Made by a program: the position numbers and the translations under genes. From positions 1 through 40,097 of the forward strand of contig JAKASB010000004.1 in NCBI GenBank assembly GCA_021828255.1: DNA of 40,097 bases. Direction: 5' to 3'. Position 1 is the first letter of the stretch; every line of letters begins with the position of its first letter. The notes under the pieces were generated by a model, which was not told the DNA's origin, searched no databases, and saw only the letters and a list, made by a program, of their open reading frames with translations. Source of the DNA: a bacterium (GTDB lineage: Bacteria; SZUA-79; Acidulodesulfobacterales; Acidulodesulfobacteraceae). This document shows, piece after piece, positions 4,096-26,133 of this stretch.

Positions 4096-5388
4096 ATGAG
4101 AAAAAAAAATATTATTGTGGTCGGTCTTCAATGGGGAGACGAAGGAAAAGGGAAAATAGTAGATTTGCTGGCCAAAGATGCCGATATAATAGCCCGCTAC
4201 CAGGGAGGGAATAATGCGGGGCATACCGTCGTAAGCGGAGATTTAAGCCTTGTATTCAGACTTGTCCCTTCAGGAATGTTAAATGAGGAAAAAATTTGCA
4301 TTTTGGGCAACGGGGTCGTTATAGACCCGGTAGTGCTGTTGCAAGAGCTTGAAGATTTAAAGGCTATAGGGATAAATATCAAAGGCAGGTTTTTTATTTC
4401 ATACAAGTCGCATATTATAATGCCGTATCATAAAAGATTAGATATAGCGAGAGAAAGATTGAGAGGCGCAGGCATGATAGGGACTACCGGAAGGGGAATA
4501 GGTCCTGCGTATGAAGACAAGGTTGCAAGGCTCGGTATCCGCGCCATAGATTTGCTTAACAGGGACTTGCTATATAAAAAAATTGTTTTAAGCCTTAAAG
4601 AAAAGAACTATCTGTTTAAAAACGTTCTCGGCGAGGACATATTCAATCCAGGCGATTTAATAGAAGAATATTTAAATTACGGCGCAAAAATTCAGGAATT
4701 TTTAATAGATTCTTCAATATTTATCGATGAACGGCTTGATAAAGGATTTAACGTCATGCTTGAAGGGGCGCAGGGAACATTTCTCGATGTCGATCACGGC
4801 ACATATCCTTATGTTACTTCGTCTAACACCGTCGGCGGTTCCGCTCTTTCCGGCATCGGTCTGGGACCTACGAAAATAGACGAGGTAATCGGCATTACAA
4901 AGGCTTACACGACAAGAGTAGGGGAAGGTTATTTCCCGACGGAACTCAAAGGGGAGGAAGGCAGGATAATAAGGGATAAGGGAGAGGAGTTCGGCTCCGT
5001 TACCGGAAGACCGAGAAGATGCGGCTGGTTTGACGTTAACTTAATTAAAGAAGCGGGGCGTTTAAACGGCGCTACCGGAATGGTGGTGACAAAACTCGAT
5101 GTTTTATCGGGATTGGGAAAAATCAATATATGCACCGGCTATATGCTGAACGGTTCTATTATAAACCATCTGCCTTTTTCTTCCGCCGATTACGATAAGG
5201 CAATCCCGGTTTATGAAGAAATGGAAGGATGGAGCGGCGATATATCAAGCATAAAATCATTTAAAGACCTCCCCGTTAATTCCCAGAAATATATTCTTAA
5301 AATAGAAGACCTTACGGGTTTGCGGATCAATATGTTGTCCGTCGGTAAAGAAAGAATGCAGACTATAAATTTAAAAAATATTTTTTAG
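4096..5388 (+). CDS. purA: Adenylosuccinate synthetase
   Basis: 'VVGLQWGDEGKGKIVDLLA', 'GGNNAGHTVV', 'GTTGRGIGPAYEDK', 'EGAQGTFLDVDHGTYPYVTSSNT'. Confidence 0.97.
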   Translation: MRKKNIIVVGLQWGDEGKGKIVDLLAKDADIIARYQGGNNAGHTVVSGDLSLVFRLVPSGMLNEEKICILGNGVVIDPVVLLQELEDLKAIGINIKGRFFISYKSHIIMPYHKRLDIARERLRGAGMIGTTGRGIGPAYEDKVARLGIRAIDLLNRDLLYKKIVLSLKEKNYLFKNVLGEDIFNPGDLIEEYLNYGAKIQEFLIDSSIFIDERLDKGFNVMLEGAQGTFLDVDHGTYPYVTSSNTVGGSALSGIGLGPTKIDEVIGITKAYTTRVGEGYFPTELKGEEGRIIRDKGEEFGSVTGRPRRCGWFDVNLIKEAGRLNGATGMVVTKLDVLSGLGKINICTGYMLNGSIINHLPFSSADYDKAIPVYEEMEGWSGDISSIKSFKDLPVNSQKYILKIEDLTGLRINMLSVGKERMQTINLKNIF

Positions 5389-5397
5389 GAAGGCTAA

Positions 5398-6237
5398 TTG
5401 TATTGTGGACAATTTTTTAATACGGCTTTGTCGCAAGACTATTCTCTAAATGTTCGTTATATGGCATATCAGTCATATTTGACCGCTCCGCACTTTTTAT
5501 ATCAGCTAAACGGTTTAGACTATTCATTTGCCGGCAAGACCGTTGCGGATATCGGTACAGGCGTGGGGATATTGCCTTATTTATTAAAAGATAAAAATCC
5601 TTCAAAGATTATAGGCATAGATTTAGATAGAAATTTTTTAAATGCCGCGCGTTATTTAGCTAATGCCGAAAATATGGGTTATATAAATGCCGACGGCTGT
5701 AATATACCCGTTAAAGATTGTGCTTTCGATGCAGTTTTTGCAAGATATGTTTTTCAGCATGTCAATTTGTCCGGTATTTTTCTTTCGGAAATTAAAAGAA
5801 TAATTAAGGAGGGCGGATTATTAGTTATAGTTGATATTGAAGACGATATGAATATATTTTATCCCGATTTGCCCAAAAGTTCCAAAAAATTATTTGGGAT
5901 TTATTCTGAATATCAAAAACTAAAAGGCGGGGACAGGTTTATTTCCAAAAAATTACCGGCTTTTTTATCATCATGGGGATTTAAGGATATAGAAATAAAA
6001 CCATATGCGCTAATGTTTTTTAAAGGCAGAGGCGAAAGTTCAAAACCCGAAGCATTAAAAAACGCTTTCTTATTGCTTCAAAACGAATTGGAACTTGTAA
6101 AAGAAGATCTTCTATCCAGAAAATTGATCGGCTCCGTAGAATTTCATAAAGGGTTAAATGATTATTTTAAATTTTTAAATTTGGAAGACAATTTGCTGAT
6201 TTCAAAAACCGAATTTTTAATTACATGTAAAAAATAA
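5398..6237 (+). CDS. Class I SAM-dependent methyltransferase
   Basis: SAM-binding 'VADIGTGVGILPYLLKDKNPSKIIGIDLD', 'FDAVFARYVFQHV'; TTG start. Confidence 0.8.
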   Translation: MYCGQFFNTALSQDYSLNVRYMAYQSYLTAPHFLYQLNGLDYSFAGKTVADIGTGVGILPYLLKDKNPSKIIGIDLDRNFLNAARYLANAENMGYINADGCNIPVKDCAFDAVFARYVFQHVNLSGIFLSEIKRIIKEGGLLVIVDIEDDMNIFYPDLPKSSKKLFGIYSEYQKLKGGDRFISKKLPAFLSSWGFKDIEIKPYALMFFKGRGESSKPEALKNAFLLLQNELELVKEDLLSRKLIGSVEFHKGLNDYFKFLNLEDNLLISKTEFLITCKK

Positions 6238-18940: not shown

Positions 18941-19975
18941 ATGGATAACAAATTAGAAATAATAAACGAAATAGACAAAATCTTCGAAGAGGCGCAAAAA
19001 TCGCTTAATTCTGCAAAGGATTTAAACGAACTTGACATTAGTTTTCGTTTTTTTACCGGAAAAAAGGGTAGGTTAACCGAAATTATGCATAATATACGTT
19101 TATATTCTACCGAAGAAAAGAAAATTGTCGGAGCAAAGTCTAACGAAGTTAAAAACACTATAGAGTTTATTTATAATGCCAGAAAAAACGAGTTTTCCGG
19201 CGCCGAGCAGAAAAAGTTTTTAAATAGATACAGGGTAGATTTAACTATTCCCGGCAATTATATAGAAAGACATCATAAACATCCTATAACCGCAGTTTTA
19301 GAAGAGGCTTCCGATTTTTTTTCCTCTATGGGCTTCGAGATAGTCGAAGGTCCTGAAATCGAAACTACTTATTATAATTTTGATGCCCTTAATATACCTG
19401 CGGACCATCCTGCAAGGGATGTGTGGGACACCTTTTATCTGTTAAATGGACTTGTTCCGAGAACTCATACGTCCAGCGTTCAAGTGAGAACTATGGAAAA
19501 AAAATCTCCTCCGTTCAGAGTTATTGCACCAGGCAGGTGTTATAGATACGAAGCCGTCGATGCTACGCATCTATTTATGTTTAATCAGATGGAAGGACTT
19601 TTTGTCGATAAAAATGTCAGATTAACGGATTTAAAGGGTATTCTGGAAGAAACCGTGAAGAACCTTCTTGGTGCCAGAAAGACGCGTTTTAGGCCGGCTT
19701 TTTATCCATTCGTCGAACCAGGTTTAGATCTCGATATCGAGTGTGTTTTTTGTGGAGGCAGGGGTTGCGGCATTTGTAAAAATACCGGATGGATAGAGGT
19801 TATTCCCTGCGGAATGGTTCATCCCAATGTTTTTAAGTATGCGGGAATAGATCCGCAGGAATATAGGGGATTTGCCTTTGGAATGGGATTCGACAGAATC
19901 GTTATGCTGAAATATAGTATTAACGATCTCAGATTGCTTTACCACGGAAATCTCGATATTCTGAACCAGTTTTAA
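18941..19975 (+). CDS. pheS: Phenylalanyl-tRNA synthetase alpha subunit
   Basis: 'LNIPADHPARDVWDTFYL', 'RTHTSSVQVRTM', 'GRCYRYEAVDATHLFMFNQMEGL', 'GFAFGMGFDRIVMLKY'. Confidence 0.97.
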   Translation: MDNKLEIINEIDKIFEEAQKSLNSAKDLNELDISFRFFTGKKGRLTEIMHNIRLYSTEEKKIVGAKSNEVKNTIEFIYNARKNEFSGAEQKKFLNRYRVDLTIPGNYIERHHKHPITAVLEEASDFFSSMGFEIVEGPEIETTYYNFDALNIPADHPARDVWDTFYLLNGLVPRTHTSSVQVRTMEKKSPPFRVIAPGRCYRYEAVDATHLFMFNQMEGLFVDKNVRLTDLKGILEETVKNLLGARKTRFRPAFYPFVEPGLDLDIECVFCGGRGCGICKNTGWIEVIPCGMVHPNVFKYAGIDPQEYRGFAFGMGFDRIVMLKYSINDLRLLYHGNLDILNQF

Positions 19976-19982
19976 TCCCTTT

Positions 19983-22043
19983 TCACTTCATCAAAAACTC
20001 CGATATTTCTCCCGAATAAGTAATAAAAACTTTTTCTTTAGCTCTTGAAGCCGCAACGTAAAAGAGTTTAACTTCGTCATCCCTGCCGGTTTCCAATTTA
20101 ATCTTGTCATTTAAAAATTGAGCAAACGGGTGTTTCGAGATTTTCCGTTGAGTAACCGTTGGAAACATACTTCTTAAATGCGGAATATTTCCGTTAGATA
20201 CGTTTACTATAAATATAATATCGAATTCCAACCCCTTGCTCTTATGTATCGTTCCTACATAACTGCTTTTATTAAAACCGGGGACGGCTTTAAAACTATT
20301 TTCCTCTTTTTTGGTTCTGACCAAAATAGCGGTCGATTTTCCTTGAGAGTTAAACTTATTAGACATTTTTTTAACAAATTTTTCTTCAAGATTTTTATTT
20401 TTAAATTGCAGAATATTAACAATATTATTATTGCCATTTTTTTCGCCCCTTTTATTTTTCGCCAATAATTTTTTAGGGTATCTAAAGGCAATTTTATTTA
20501 TTATTAAATTGCAAAAATCTATAATTTTATAATGAGACCTATAATTATTTTGAAATACAAAGATTTTTCCGGAAGGGAAAAATAGGTCGAAGAATAATAT
20601 ATTCAAAGAATCGCCGCCGTTAAATCCGTATATAGCCTGGTCGTCGTCTCCGGCATACATAACTGCGCCTCTGGCAAAGTCTAATTTTTTTATAATATAA
20701 TCGCTAAAAAAATCGAGGTCTTGATATTCATCGACGAGGACATATTTGAACCTTGATGCGATATCGTAAACAATATCTTGGTTTTTAAAAAGTTTTAAAA
20801 CATATAAAATAATTTCATCGTAAGATATAAAAACATTCTTTGTGTTTTCGCCGGAATTGTTGTCGTTTTCTTTGATTAAAGGAGTGGATTTGAACCCTAA
20901 TTCTTTATAAAATTCTTTGATAATGGAATAGAAGAAACTGTGATACGTTGAAATATTTAAAACTTTATCATAAGTTAGATTATTATTAGTTTCGTTGTTC
21001 ATTGTAAAGGAGGATGCAATTCTATTTTTTATCTCGGTAGCGGCATTATTCGTAAATGTTAAAATTATTATGGAATCTGCAGAAATAAAATTTGAAAGAT
21101 ATAAAAATTTATTCACTATAATTCCCGTTTTTCCCGACCCCGCTCCTGCAATAACAAGATGAGGGGAAAATATTTCTTTTATAGATATATCTTGAATTGT
21201 ACTCATTTCGCCGAGCCCTGTTTTATTTGTTTTGTTTTTGTTATAACTGCAATGAACCGGCTTGCGGACGTTTCCGGTAGTCCCAAGAAATATTTTAATT
21301 TTATTAATTAATTCGCCTGGATAAAGATAAATATCCGTTAAGGTAGTGTTTATAGATATGCCGTTTTTTGAAATAAATTCGCCGTTTGAATCTACAATTT
21401 TTTTTAACGGAACAATTGTTAATTTAATTTCAAATTTTTTATCGTCAAAAAAAAACAAACCTGTTTTGTCATAATTTTCAGGTTTCTTTTTATTTTTATT
21501 TATATGAAACCCTAAGGCGTTAATTTTATAAATAATGTTAGCCATAGACGAGGTGTAACCGCCGTATTTATTATCTTTAACCATTCTGGTTTCTATCAAA
21601 AAGATTAAGCGTGTTTTGTAAATGTCTAAAATCAAGTATTCGTAAGAATTTTTATCGTAATTTAAATATGAAGAAAAAATGTTATTTATGTTAAAACCGT
21701 TTTCGGCTCTTATGCAAAAGACAATCCGGTTATTTAAAACAAAATCGCAAATCGCATTAAATAATACGGCGTCCCACAGGCATTTTATTTTTATGTCCTC
21801 TAAAATGATGACTCTTGCGGATAAAAACTTATTAATATCTCTAAAGGGAAAATTGAGTGGAGAAGTTATTTTGCCGTTAAAATCAAAATGCGTTTTTAAA
21901 GCTTCAAAAGAATAAAATTTATAATCAATTTCTAATTCATTAATTCTTTTTATAAAATCTTCTTTTTCTAATTCTGAAGAAAGCATAATTCCGATTGAAC
22001 CGGATAGATTAAAATTGAAATTTTTAAAATAAAGATTTATCAT
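19983..22043 (-). CDS. UvrD/Rep-family SF1 helicase with ~290-aa unassigned N-terminal region
   Basis: Walker A 'VIAGAGSGKTGII', Ia 'IILTFTNNAATEIKNRI', II 'VLVDEYQDLD', III 'AGDDDQAIYGFNGGDS', IV 'NNYRSHYKII', V 'TIHKSKGLEFDIIFI', VI 'LFYVAASRAKEKVFI'. Confidence 0.9.
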   Translation of the reverse strand: MINLYFKNFNFNLSGSIGIMLSSELEKEDFIKRINELEIDYKFYSFEALKTHFDFNGKITSPLNFPFRDINKFLSARVIILEDIKIKCLWDAVLFNAICDFVLNNRIVFCIRAENGFNINNIFSSYLNYDKNSYEYLILDIYKTRLIFLIETRMVKDNKYGGYTSSMANIIYKINALGFHINKNKKKPENYDKTGLFFFDDKKFEIKLTIVPLKKIVDSNGEFISKNGISINTTLTDIYLYPGELINKIKIFLGTTGNVRKPVHCSYNKNKTNKTGLGEMSTIQDISIKEIFSPHLVIAGAGSGKTGIIVNKFLYLSNFISADSIIILTFTNNAATEIKNRIASSFTMNNETNNNLTYDKVLNISTYHSFFYSIIKEFYKELGFKSTPLIKENDNNSGENTKNVFISYDEIILYVLKLFKNQDIVYDIASRFKYVLVDEYQDLDFFSDYIIKKLDFARGAVMYAGDDDQAIYGFNGGDSLNILFFDLFFPSGKIFVFQNNYRSHYKIIDFCNLIINKIAFRYPKKLLAKNKRGEKNGNNNIVNILQFKNKNLEEKFVKKMSNKFNSQGKSTAILVRTKKEENSFKAVPGFNKSSYVGTIHKSKGLEFDIIFIVNVSNGNIPHLRSMFPTVTQRKISKHPFAQFLNDKIKLETGRDDEVKLFYVAASRAKEKVFITYSGEISEFLMK

Positions 22044-22044
22044 A

Positions 22045-22058
22045 TTATAAATTTATAA
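22045..22058. promoter_or_regulatory. 14-bp perfect palindrome TTATAAATTTATAA between divergent genes
   Basis: Sits in the 27-bp gap between divergent start codons (22043 minus, 22071 plus); contains overlapping TATAAA/TTTATA elements on both strands. Confidence 0.4.
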
Positions 22059-22070
22059 ATTAAATAAACA

Positions 22071-22673
22071 ATGATCCAAAAATATAATAATATTAATATC
22101 GGTAAAAACGGGGAATATTTTTATCTTAAAGACTATATGCCGAAAAATAAAAAGACCTCGTTAGACAAAGACGCCGTTAAGCATTCGGAATATATATTAA
22201 AATACAAAAAAGGAGATCCCCTGATAATAGCTTTTTTCGTCAAAATTTTAAATAATATTATATATAATTATTTTTATTTTTACGATTTGATTCTTCCTGT
22301 TCCCCCAAGCAATTCCTATTTAGATGTTTATCCTAACGCTATCGTCTGCTCATATCTTTCGGCGCTGGGAACGATAAATACTCTTGAAAGAGCGATTGCC
22401 TGCTATAAAGGACATAAACCCGGACATATAGAAGATATCGAATCTAAAAAAAATGATCTAATGCATATTTCCGTAATAAATAAATATGACTTTGAATATA
22501 AAAACATAATAATTTTGGACGATATTATTACCACTGGAACAACATTTGCCCATATAAAGGATGCTTTGTTAAGAAAAGGCGCAAATTCGGTCACAGGGTT
22601 GTTTCTCGGAAAAACATATTCAGCTTATCCGGCTTACGGTTTTAGAAAAGAGGATATTAATATTAATGGATGA
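22071..22673 (+). CDS. ComF-like type I phosphoribosyltransferase (no N-terminal Zn ribbon seen)
   Basis: PRPP-binding motif 'NIIILDDIITTGTTFAHI'; upstream 'YDLILPVPPSN'; overlaps the next gene by 8 nt. Confidence 0.8.
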   Translation: MIQKYNNINIGKNGEYFYLKDYMPKNKKTSLDKDAVKHSEYILKYKKGDPLIIAFFVKILNNIIYNYFYFYDLILPVPPSNSYLDVYPNAIVCSYLSALGTINTLERAIACYKGHKPGHIEDIESKKNDLMHISVINKYDFEYKNIIILDDIITTGTTFAHIKDALLRKGANSVTGLFLGKTYSAYPAYGFRKEDINING

Positions 22674-23658
22674 TTTAATATGCACTCTTGCACTAAAAAA
22701 GATAAAAGGACTTAAGAATCAGCATATATTTTTTTTATTAAAAACGTTTAAGAATCCATGCGAAATTTTTAGCGCAGATAAGTCTGATTTTATGAGAGCC
22801 GGTTTAAAAACCGAGTATATAAAAATTTTAACTAATCCAAGAATCATAAAGACCGCATTCTTTGATGCGATTAAAGAAATCGAAGAAGCTTCTAAAAATG
22901 GAATTAAAATTATAACCTTTAATTCGGCTTTATACCCTTCTAATCTAAATCTTATAAAAGCCAAACCCCCGGTTCTATATTATAAAGGAGTATTAAAGGA
23001 AAATTTAAGATTTGCGGCAACGGTCGTTGGGCAGAGAAAGCCGCCTAATTATGCATTAGAACTTGCAAGAAATATTACCGTAAAGTTATGTTTACACGGT
23101 TATTCTATAATAAGCGGACTTGCATTAGGGATAGATGCTATAGCCCACAAGACTGCGTTAAAAAATAACGGCTATACTATTGCTTATATCGGTTCGGGTT
23201 TGCTGGCACCGGTGTATCCGCTGGAAAATAAAGACTTGTATAATGAAATAATATTAAGCGGCGGAGCTATAATTTCGGAACTGCCTTTGTATGAAAAAAC
23301 CTCTTCCAAAAATTTAGTCGCAAGAGACAGGTTGCAGAGCGGTTCAGGACTTGGAACGTTTGCGGTGTCTTCGCCGGTAAAAAGCGGAACAATGAAAACA
23401 TGCAATTTTTCCATAAAGCAAAAAAGGCCTGTTTTTGTTCCGGAATATAATTTAAAACTTATGAATTCTCCTGATAATCTGGGCTTAAAATCGCTTTTTG
23501 GAGCCGTAGGTGTCTTTGGTTTAAAGTTAATTAAAGATCTTTCTTTAGATATAACGGAAGCCGTGGACGAGATGATGCAGGTTTATAATAAAATGTATGC
23601 CGAAAAGTTTGATGAAGACGACTCGTTAATACAACCGGGATTATTCGACTTTATGTAA
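22666..23658 (+). CDS. DprA/Smf-like (SLOG) DNA-processing protein, atypical variant
   Basis: N-terminal HhH-like region; 'VVGQRKPPNYALELA', 'SIISGLALGIDAIAHKTAL', 'IAYIGSGLLAPVYPLEN', variant 'VARDRLQSGSGLGTFAVSSPVKSGTMKT' where canonical DprA has RRNR-II-(A/S)GLS. Confidence 0.85.
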   Translation: MDDLICTLALKKIKGLKNQHIFFLLKTFKNPCEIFSADKSDFMRAGLKTEYIKILTNPRIIKTAFFDAIKEIEEASKNGIKIITFNSALYPSNLNLIKAKPPVLYYKGVLKENLRFAATVVGQRKPPNYALELARNITVKLCLHGYSIISGLALGIDAIAHKTALKNNGYTIAYIGSGLLAPVYPLENKDLYNEIILSGGAIISELPLYEKTSSKNLVARDRLQSGSGLGTFAVSSPVKSGTMKTCNFSIKQKRPVFVPEYNLKLMNSPDNLGLKSLFGAVGVFGLKLIKDLSLDITEAVDEMMQVYNKMYAEKFDEDDSLIQPGLFDFM

Positions 23659-23685
23659 CCTATTTTTTTATAAGAAAGGAGGAAT

Positions 23686-26133
23686 TTGAAATTGAAGGTT
23701 AGTTTGAACTGGCTTAAGGAATTTGTAAATTTTAATACGGAAGCCGAAAAAATAGCAAGTCTATTAAATAACAGAACGATGGAAGTAGAAAAAATTTTTC
23801 CTTATTCTTTGCAAAAAAAATCTTTTGAAAATATAGTAGTAGGAGAAATTAAAAGCATAGCTGCGCATCCGTCGAGTGACAAGTTTGGTATTGCAGAAGT
23901 TTACGGCGGGGAGGCTATTGGAACGAAAAGAATAGTTTTTACAAAAGAAGGACTTGATATAAAAGTCGGAGAAAAGCCTTTAATTGCTACGAAGGGAACA
24001 GTGTTTGAGCATGGTTTGAAAATAAGAGATAAAGCTATATTTGGCGTAGTTTCAGAAGCGGCTTTCTGTTCCGAAAAGGATTTAGGCCTCCAGTTAAATA
24101 TATCTTCTATTGTAAAATTTCCCTTTGAAAAAACAGGCAGGACGGCTTACGATATTTTTGAATTAAACGATACTATTTTAGAATTCGATCTTGAGCCAAA
24201 CAGACCGGACTTATTTGGCATGTTAGGGTTTGCTTACGAACTATCGGCTATATTAGATAAAGATTTGATTTTGCCGGAACTATATGGCGGCATAGAATTT
24301 AAACCGGACGGAAATTATTCTTCTAAGGAAAGCGGGTTAACCGTAAATATAGAAAATAAAGACTTAATTCCTGTTTATATAGCTATTAAGATTTCCGGCG
24401 TAAAAATAAAAGAATCTGGTATGGATATAAAAAACAAATTGTTGAAGAGCGGCATAAGACCAATCAACAATATCGTGGATTTAACTAATATCGTTATGAT
24501 GGAAACATCTCAGCCGCTCCACGCTTTCGATGCCGGAAAATTAGAGGGTAATAAAATTAATGTCAGGCATGCGAAAAAAGGGGAACCTATTATTGCCTTA
24601 GACGGCAAGGAAAGAAAATTGTCGGACGAAGATATTGTTATAGCCGATAAAAATAAGATTATTGCCATTGCAGGAGTTATGGGAGCGTTAAACAGCGAAA
24701 TAGATGAAAATACTTTAGATATTATAGTCGAAGCCGCAAATTTTAATATGTCAAGCGTAAGAAAAACATCGAGGATGCTTTCCCTAAGAACGGATGCTTC
24801 GACCCGGTTCGAAAAAGGTCTTCACCCCTCTTTAAGCATATTAGGAATTAAACGTTTTTTACATCTTCTTAACAAATATACCGGCAACATTAATGTTTCC
24901 TGCCAAGCCTATGATATAAAAAAATACGATAAGCCAAAAATTTATGTAATAAAATTGAATGATTTGTCTGATTTTCTGGGAGATTCTGCCGTAAAAAATA
25001 AAGCATCCCGTTTTTTATCGCGCCTTGGATACGAAATAACCGGAGATAAATCTGAAAAAGCCGCCGGTGAAGAGAGCATCTCGGTTATACCGCCTTATTT
25101 CAGGAGCGATATAACGGAGAACGTTAATATTTACGAGGACGTATTCAGAATTTACGGTTATGATAATATTAAATCTTCAATTCCTTGCGGCATTTTAACG
25201 CCGCCGCAAAAAAATTCAAACTTTGAAACGTCGAGGCTCTTCAGAAATTTATTAAGATGTATCGGATTTACCGAGGTTATTTCCCCGTCGCTTACGGGAG
25301 AAAAAGAGATAAATATTTCACTTGGAGGCGGCAGCGATAAAGCCGATGTTCTGGAACTTAAAAATCCGATATCGAAAGATTACTCGTTTTTCAGGATCAG
25401 CATAATACCGGATGAACTAAAGGCGGTATCGCAAAATTCTAAAAAATATAAAAACATTAAAATATTTGAAATTGGGAAGATTTATACCGGAGAAAAGTCC
25501 GAAGGCTATCCCGTTACGGAAAAAAATATTTTATGCGGAAGCATTTGCACAGGAATTAAACATACAAGCCGTGAATCCGAATTTTACAACGGAAAAGGTA
25601 TAGTCGAATTTTTACTCAAAGAATCCGGGATTAAAAAATTCGTATTCAATAAAGTGGATGCCGATAAGATTTACAATGAAAATGCGGCTTTAAAAATTTC
25701 GATAGGTAAAAATATAGCCGGTATTTTTGGAGAAATAAAGAAAGAAATACTAGGTGAGTTTAAGATAGAGTATAAGGTTTTTGCATTTGAGTTCGATATC
25801 GATTTTATCAAGGATTTTATTTCCGATAAAAAATCTTTTATCCAACCTCATAAGTATCCCGAAATAGAGCAGGATATTTCTATTGTAGCAGGCGAAGACA
25901 TTGAATACGCAACCGTAGAAAAATTTATAAAGGGTTTTTCTGGATTAATTAAAAATGTGAGATTGGCGGATATTTATAGAGGCAAACAGATCGAGGAGGG
26001 GAAAATAGCTTTCCTCATAAGATACGATGCAATGGCGGAAGGCAGGACGCTGACTATGGAAGAAGTCAATTCATTAAGAGACAGTCTTATAAAAGAGTTG
26101 AATGTCCGTTTTGGAATTACCCTAAGAAGTTAA
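23686..26133 (+). CDS. pheT: Phenylalanyl-tRNA synthetase beta subunit
   Basis: TTG start after AAAGGAGG; 'LKVSLNWLKEFVNF', tRNA-binding domain, 'PNRPDLFGMLGFAYELSAI', 'NIVDLTNIVMMETSQPLHAFDAGKL', C-terminal FDX-ACB domain. Confidence 0.97.
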   Translation: MKLKVSLNWLKEFVNFNTEAEKIASLLNNRTMEVEKIFPYSLQKKSFENIVVGEIKSIAAHPSSDKFGIAEVYGGEAIGTKRIVFTKEGLDIKVGEKPLIATKGTVFEHGLKIRDKAIFGVVSEAAFCSEKDLGLQLNISSIVKFPFEKTGRTAYDIFELNDTILEFDLEPNRPDLFGMLGFAYELSAILDKDLILPELYGGIEFKPDGNYSSKESGLTVNIENKDLIPVYIAIKISGVKIKESGMDIKNKLLKSGIRPINNIVDLTNIVMMETSQPLHAFDAGKLEGNKINVRHAKKGEPIIALDGKERKLSDEDIVIADKNKIIAIAGVMGALNSEIDENTLDIIVEAANFNMSSVRKTSRMLSLRTDASTRFEKGLHPSLSILGIKRFLHLLNKYTGNINVSCQAYDIKKYDKPKIYVIKLNDLSDFLGDSAVKNKASRFLSRLGYEITGDKSEKAAGEESISVIPPYFRSDITENVNIYEDVFRIYGYDNIKSSIPCGILTPPQKNSNFETSRLFRNLLRCIGFTEVISPSLTGEKEINISLGGGSDKADVLELKNPISKDYSFFRISIIPDELKAVSQNSKKYKNIKIFEIGKIYTGEKSEGYPVTEKNILCGSICTGIKHTSRESEFYNGKGIVEFLLKESGIKKFVFNKVDADKIYNENAALKISIGKNIAGIFGEIKKEILGEFKIEYKVFAFEFDIDFIKDFISDKKSFIQPHKYPEIEQDISIVAGEDIEYATVEKFIKGFSGLIKNVRLADIYRGKQIEEGKIAFLIRYDAMAEGRTLTMEEVNSLRDSLIKELNVRFGITLRS

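What the first reader, a model, noticed from the sequence alone, without database searches (positions are those of the whole stretch)
19983..23658. Helicase / PRTase / atypical DprA module inserted between pheS and pheT
pheS (ends 19975) and pheT (starts 23686) are normally adjacent. Here they are split by a minus-strand SF1 helicase and a divergent, translationally overlapping PRTase-dprA pair (8-nt overlap). Gaps are very tight: 7 bp pheS/helicase, 27 bp divergent promoter, 27 bp dprA/pheT. The three families (UvrD-type helicase, PRPP-binding PRTase, SLOG/DprA fold) suggest a linked DNA-processing, uptake or defence function rather than three unrelated genes. I recall DprA-like/PRTase/helicase associations being discussed in comparative genomics of SLOG proteins, but cannot verify that here. 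The module function is inference.
Basis: partly seen in the sequence, partly recalled or inferred. Interest (0 to 1): 0.72.

Follow-up and report, generated by a model that had tools for sequence, protein, structure and literature searches.

The report
Phylum-wide helicase, PRTase and DprA module
Between two essential tRNA-synthetase genes, a whole phylum of acid-mine bacteria carries a fixed trio of DNA-handling genes; two of them resemble known anti-phage toxin-antitoxin pairs rather than DNA-uptake genes, although the genomes lack the DNA-uptake channel.

Summary
It is not a recent insertion. The same order is found in 25 of the 30 genomes held for the phylum (one family, six genera, evidently Ca. 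Acidulodesulfobacterales). Three more are cut by contig ends but agree, one lacks only the helicase, and one gave no data. All three genes are under purifying selection. The DprA is the only one per genome, the PRTase is essentially the only ComF-like protein, and ComEC is absent in all 30 genomes, so ordinary transformation is excluded. PADLOC's ShosA model is no evidence: canonical DprAs score higher on it. The protein signatures are better evidence. The DprA has RDRLQ...SGTMKT in 26/26 members, as in ShosA- and RqlI-type antitoxins, against RNR in 64/64 nearest outside DprAs. The PRTase lacks the ComFC zinc finger and arginine loop and ends in the LxK of ShosT-type toxins. The helicase's 280-residue N-terminus occurs nowhere else searched. 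Best reading: a vertically fixed, ShosTA/RqlHI-like PRTase-DprA switch with its own helicase, probably acting in genome-integrity sensing or defence. Biochemical function is untested. New variant of a known kind.

The parts
18941..19975 (+). pheS, left border
   Evidence: Pfam PF01409 2e-94
19983..22043 (-). SF1A (UvrD-type) helicase, 686 aa; all helicase motifs kept (AGAGSGKT, VDEYQD, GDDDQ, TIHKSKG, YVAxSRA); residues 1-280 are an N-terminal domain found only in this phylum
   Evidence: Pfam PF00580/PF13361; family alignment A1; N-terminal search
21204..22043 (-). N-terminal 280-aa domain of the helicase, no known family
   Evidence: 27/30 genomes of the phylum and none of 356 others at E <= 1e-3; none in plasmids or viral contigs
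22044..22070 (.). 27-bp AT-rich divergent intergenic region; probable start of the PRTase-dprA(-pheT) transcript (inference)
   Evidence: sequence; promoter scan not above chance
22071..22673 (+). PRTase, 200 aa, ComF/ShosT superfamily, PRPP loop DDIITTGTT intact, no zinc finger; candidate toxin/effector
22666..23658 (+). DprA-like SLOG-fold protein, 330 aa, RDRLQ/SGTMKT signature; candidate antitoxin/sensor; 8-nt overlap with the PRTase
23686..26133 (+). pheT, right border (start more likely 23692)
   Evidence: Pfam PF03483/PF17759; sequence

Best explanation
It is a chromosomally fixed, phylum-wide relative of the PRTase-DprA toxin-antitoxin/defence pairs (ShosTA, RqlHI/PsyrTA, the P2-phage DprA-PRTase pair), with a dedicated, phylum-specific SF1 helicase. 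Shown here: the three genes stay together by vertical descent; the catalytic motifs of the PRTase and helicase are kept; the DprA carries the signature of PRTase-partnered DprAs; ComEC and a second DprA are absent. Inferred: the DprA-like protein binds the PRTase and holds it silent, and is released when it meets ssDNA or damaged or invading DNA exposed or processed by the helicase. The freed PRTase then acts on PRPP or nucleotides to stop growth or replication. Because the pair lies just upstream of pheT on the same strand, it is probably co-transcribed with an essential gene.
For: Synteny in 25 of 30 genomes, three more consistent at contig ends. Purifying selection: dN/dS about 0.09-0.15 (dprA), 0.11-0.24 (PRTase), 0.17-0.25 (helicase). 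DprA signature RDRLQ...GTMKT in 26/26 against FPxRNR in 64/64 nearest outside DprAs; RecQ-, HAD- and PRTase-linked DprAs share R[DN]RxQ and often GTMHT. Among the sampled outside loci a PRTase neighbour was detected for 7/21 RxQ-type and 3/93 RNR-type DprAs (p = 2e-4; with annotation and alignment at least 14/21). PRTase: ShosT 53.7 > ComF 45.7 > PsyrT 19.7 bits, whereas four ComF controls score ComF 45-129, PsyrT 27-59, ShosT 27-48. No zinc finger in 27/27, no ComFC arginine loop, C-terminal LxK/R. Best PDB fold match ShosT 8zvb, from a weak model. No ComEC in 30/30. Literature: DprA + PRTase defends against phage (PMC9122126); RqlI restrains the RqlH PRTase and binds it (PMC4670107).
Against: Core-gene behaviour (no loss of the pair seen, single copy, no defence island; neighbours are amino-acid and tRNA genes) is unusual for defence systems. 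On the DprA tree the family falls neither inside the canonical clade nor inside the antitoxin set, on a long branch. No HAD domain, which ShosT-type partners often have. The PRTase still matches the ComF core. One genome lives without the helicase (L054). No functional data.
Confidence: 0.5

Rival explanations
1. A competence-derived ssDNA-handling complex (helicase + ComFC-like PRTase + DprA, like the ComFA-ComFC-DprA complex of Gram-positives) kept after loss of the uptake channel, now serving conjugation, repair or another uptake route.
For: PRTase matches ComF core positions 46-188 of 190 and is essentially the only ComF-like protein in the genome (two genomes show one extra weak hit). The DprA is the only DprA. 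ComFA, ComFC and DprA form complexes (Diallo 2017, cited in PMC9005727). In H. pylori the ComFC zinc finger is needed for internalisation and membrane association, not for later ssDNA handling (PMC9005727); here zinc finger and ComEC are both missing.
Against: DprA and PRTase signatures depart from competence proteins at positions invariant in canonical ones; the helicase is SF1, not the SF2-type ComFA; the dprA is not among canonical DprAs in the tree.
Confidence: 0.25
2. Housekeeping recombination repair: the DprA-like protein loads RecA, and the helicase and PRTase assist at gaps or forks; not a toxin-antitoxin or defence system.
For: Universal, single-copy, vertically inherited, strong purifying selection; DprA family is known to load RecA.
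Against: The phylum has RecR (30/30) and RecO (29/30), so no gap needs filling; the residues that mark canonical DprA are replaced.
Confidence: 0.17
3. Chance or neutral neighbours: three unrelated genes that happened to settle between pheS and pheT.
For: pheS and pheT are split in some bacteria, so intervening genes are tolerated (general knowledge).
Against: Order and orientation kept across six genera although proteins have diverged to 36-60% identity; partner families co-occur elsewhere.
Confidence: 0.04
4. A regulatory role in PheRS expression or tRNA metabolism.
For: Only 27-33 bp separate dprA from pheT in the window, so the pair may set pheT transcription.
Against: All three families are DNA/nucleotide-handling; dprA-pheT distance varies up to about 330 bp in other genera.
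Confidence: 0.04

Closest known systems
ShosTA toxin-antitoxin / DprA-PRTase phage-defence pairs (PDB 8zvb, 9vzo; PfAC02a phage L176; P2 phage L169)
   Same: PRTase next to a DprA-like protein with the RxQ signature; PRTase closest to ShosT in PADLOC and in fold search
   Different: No HAD domain, an added SF1 helicase, chromosomal and vertical across a phylum instead of patchy on mobile elements
RqlHI / PsyrTA (RecQ-like helicase-PRTase toxin + DprA-like antitoxin)
   Same: Helicase + PRTase + DprA triad
   Different: Helicase is SF1 (UvrD), encoded by a separate divergent gene; PRTase not fused; PRTase matches PsyrT weakly (19.7 bits)
ComFA-ComFC-DprA of natural transformation
   Same: Same three functional classes; PRTase matches the ComF core
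   Different: No ComEC, no zinc finger in the PRTase, SF1 rather than ComFA helicase, non-canonical DprA
Tunicatimonas pelagia plasmid locus NZ_CP120684 (L178/L186)
   Same: PRTase-DprA (4-nt overlap) followed by a UvrD-type helicase
   Different: Larger PRTase, helicase fused to a PD-(D/E)XK nuclease and without the N-terminal domain; beside a transposon and a restriction system

Membership tests
Canonical competence DprA | FPxRNR(I/V) and VVVEA...SGSLIT motifs | tested here: not met
   RDRLQ/SGTMKT in 26/26; canonical residues in 64/64 nearest outside DprAs
Canonical competence DprA | Clusters with canonical DprAs in a tree | tested here: not met
   Canonical clade 100/97 excludes the family; long branch, so with caution
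Canonical competence DprA | ComEC channel in the same genome | tested here: not met
   PF03772 0/30, control 10/14; weak DUF4131 hits are off-target, the window's own being phosphatidylserine decarboxylase
ComFC | N-terminal 4-Cys zinc finger | tested here: not met
   No CxxC in 27/27
ComFC | PRPP loop DDxxTTGxT | tested here: met
   DDIITTGTT, near-invariant
ComFC | R...RG[FY][ND] loop after the second strand | tested here: not met
   SNSYLDVYPN in its place; 4/4 ComF controls have R..R(G/S)(F/Y)(N/D)
ShosTA / PRTase-DprA toxin-antitoxin | PRTase adjacent to a DprA-like gene | tested here: met
   All genomes where the contig allows
ShosTA / PRTase-DprA toxin-antitoxin | DprA of antitoxin type (RxQ signature) | tested here: met
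   but PADLOC PDLC03961 itself does not discriminate
ShosTA / PRTase-DprA toxin-antitoxin | Sequence clade with known antitoxin DprAs | tested here: inconclusive
   Family lies between the antitoxin set and the canonical clade, fork 88/82
ShosTA / PRTase-DprA toxin-antitoxin | HAD domain with the PRTase (in ShosT and many relatives) | tested here: not met
   Pfam finds no HAD in the 200-aa PRTase; present in L176
ShosTA / PRTase-DprA toxin-antitoxin | Toxin activity relieved by the DprA; phage defence | not testable with these tools
   needs bench work
RqlHI / PsyrTA | RecQ-type SF2 helicase fused to the PRTase | tested here: not met
   Separate UvrD-type SF1 helicase

The most novel reading that the evidence does not exclude
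A PRTase-DprA toxin-antitoxin-like pair became a fixed core function of a whole bacterial phylum (a permanent genome-integrity or anti-phage switch locked upstream of an essential gene), paired with a helicase that carries a domain family unknown elsewhere as its DNA sensor.
Probability: 0.3. Interest if true: 0.75.

Novelty: new variant of a known kind. Interest (0 to 1): 0.55.

Why it matters
It shows the helicase-PRTase-DprA association in a third form (after ComFA-ComFC-DprA and RqlHI) and as a core, vertically inherited trait in organisms without ComEC. That offers a natural test of what DprA and ComF-type PRTases do apart from DNA uptake, and of whether a toxin-antitoxin or defence module can be domesticated phylum-wide.

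Tried and rejected
PADLOC ShosA label as proof of defence: rejected, because eight canonical DprAs score 216-242 bits on the same model against the window's 198. ShosT label: ComF controls also score 27-48 bits, so only the order ShosT > ComF > PsyrT is used. GajB hits of the helicase: generic UvrD similarity. DUF4131 as a ComEC trace: the window's own hit is a phosphatidylserine decarboxylase. AlphaFold models of the helicase and PRTase are weak (mean pLDDT 58); fold matches are only supporting. Search for the trio beside the 64 nearest outside DprAs found none. Plasmid, phage and viral searches for the PRTase or the helicase N-terminus found nothing. A PRPP-motif script missed several annotated PRTases, so its 7/21 is a lower bound.

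Full report
1. Observation. Pfam confirms the families: UvrD-type SF1 helicase, DNA_processg_A and PheS/PheT. The PRTase is divergent (21.5 bits, cut-off 26.3) but keeps the PRPP loop IIILDDIITTGTTF. The pheT start is better put at TTG 23692, because the Shine-Dalgarno AAGGAGG ends at 23682.

2. Distribution. The window's genome is 1.48 Mb, 91% complete, in 122 contigs. The GTDB phylum holds 30 genomes, all of one family and six genera. Two of them match, in size and contig number, AP2 (2,217,123 bp, 5 scaffolds) and AP3 (1,873,120 bp, 7 scaffolds) of Ca. Acidulodesulfobacterales (PMC6776010), so the host very probably belongs to that acid-mine group (inference). Searches with each protein and 29 fetched loci show the order pheS-helicase(-)-PRTase-dprA-pheT in 24 other genomes. 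Three further loci are cut by contig ends but agree. L054 (G018, 99% complete) has pheS-PRTase-dprA-pheT without a helicase; one 65%-complete genome gave nothing. Whether L054 lost the helicase or the others gained it is open, because that fork of the tree is unresolved. The module is therefore ancestral and core, not a recent or mobile insertion. dN/dS against the window (Nei-Gojobori script) is about 0.09-0.15 for dprA, 0.11-0.24 for the PRTase and 0.17-0.25 for the helicase. DprA is as conserved as PheT (69% and 68% mean identity to the window); PRTase (59%) and helicase (50%) evolve faster.

3. Genome context. DprA occurs once per genome in this family, apart from one copy split between two contigs. 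The PRTase is the only ComF-like protein in nearly all of them (two genomes show one additional weak hit). ComEC is absent in 30/30 genomes while the control search finds it in 10 of 14 reference genomes. Weak DUF4131 hits do not change this: the window's own hit lies in a phosphatidylserine decarboxylase. RecR (30/30) and RecO (29/30) are present. Neighbouring genes are serine, branched-chain amino acid, purine and tRNA genes, not a defence island.

4. The DprA. PADLOC names it ShosA (198 bits), but the control is decisive: eight canonical outside DprAs score 216-242 bits on that model. The informative evidence is residue-level. In the 64 nearest outside DprAs the motif is FPxRNR(I/V) and VVVEA..SGSLIT; in 26/26 family members it is LVARDRLQSGS and SS..SGTMKTC, with minor variation at the flanking positions. 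DprAs that sit beside PRTase/HAD proteins or a RecQ-family helicase on plasmids and phages read xxR[DN]R(I/L)Q(A/S)(G/A)LS and often GGTMHT or SGTxHT. An adjacent PRTase was detected by motif in 7/21 RxQ-type and 3/93 RNR-type loci (p = 2e-4); adding annotated and aligned PRTases gives at least 14/21. The sample was not random, because some plasmid loci were chosen with PRTase annotation in view. In a maximum-likelihood tree canonical DprAs form a 100/97 clade that excludes the family; the family is also outside the antitoxin set, on a branch of 1.39. It is therefore antitoxin-like in signature and intermediate in the tree.

5. The PRTase. It aligns to the ComF core (TIGR00201 positions 46-188 in the window protein, about 40-190 across the family) but lacks the zinc finger (no CxxC in 27/27) and the ComFC arginine loop; its C-terminus LGKT/LGRT resembles the LxK of ShosT-type proteins. 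Bit scores are ShosT 53.7, ComF 45.7, PsyrT 19.7 for the window. Four ComF controls give ComF 45-129, PsyrT 27-59, ShosT 27-48. The best PDB fold match is ShosT (8zvb), from a model of mean pLDDT 57.5, so it is weak support. In H. pylori ComFC the zinc finger serves internalisation and membrane association (PMC9005727); its absence here together with ComEC is coherent with a role that does not involve uptake.

6. The helicase. The SF1 motifs are kept throughout the family. Its first 280 residues form a domain found in 27 of 30 genomes of the phylum and in none of 356 others at E <= 1e-3, nor in plasmids or viral contigs. The structure model is weak; fold search returns PcrA/UvrD/Rep for the motor.

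7. Does the trio exist elsewhere? PRTase-DprA pairs are widespread on plasmids and phages. A Tunicatimonas plasmid carries PRTase-DprA (4-nt overlap) followed by a UvrD-type helicase fused to a PD-(D/E)XK nuclease, beside a transposon and a restriction system. That is one independent case, suggestive only.

8. Mechanism (inference). By analogy with RqlHI, where the DprA-like RqlI binds and restrains a toxic PRTase (PMC4670107), and with the P2-phage DprA-PRTase pair that protects E. coli from T7 and lambda (PMC9122126), the DprA-like protein is proposed to sense ssDNA and hold the PRTase silent, with the helicase supplying or reading the DNA signal. The universal, vertical distribution argues for a genome-integrity or domesticated role as much as for defence. 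Confidence is 0.5 for the PRTase-DprA switch and 0.25 for a competence-derived ssDNA-handling complex without uptake.

Noticed in passing
L178 and L186 (Tunicatimonas pelagia plasmid NZ_CP120684, 68920-74075): PRTase-DprA-UvrD/PD-(D/E)XK triad next to a Tn3-family transposase and a restriction system; a possible mobile defence variant of the same triad.
   Followed up: partly
window 23676-23692: The pheT start is probably TTG 23692 rather than TTG 23686, judged by the Shine-Dalgarno spacing.
   Followed up: yes
30 genomes of the phylum: ComEC (PF03772) is absent from all genomes held for this phylum.
   Followed up: yes
L054 (G018) 4349-5987: Natural helicase-less version of the locus; the helicase N-terminal domain is not found elsewhere in that genome.
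   Followed up: partly
viral contigs L236, L241, L242, L266, L275, L280, L282, L291: Phage DprA-like genes directly beside a PRTase but without the RNR or RxQ motif, perhaps a further antitoxin type.
   Followed up: no
L052, L057, L059, L061, L063, L064, L065 (genus g2): The helicase has an insertion of about 55-80 residues between the motor motifs, giving 749-772 aa.
   Followed up: no
PADLOC model PDLC03961: The ShosA model matches canonical DprA as strongly as antitoxin DprA, so PADLOC ShosA calls need a partner check.
   Followed up: yes
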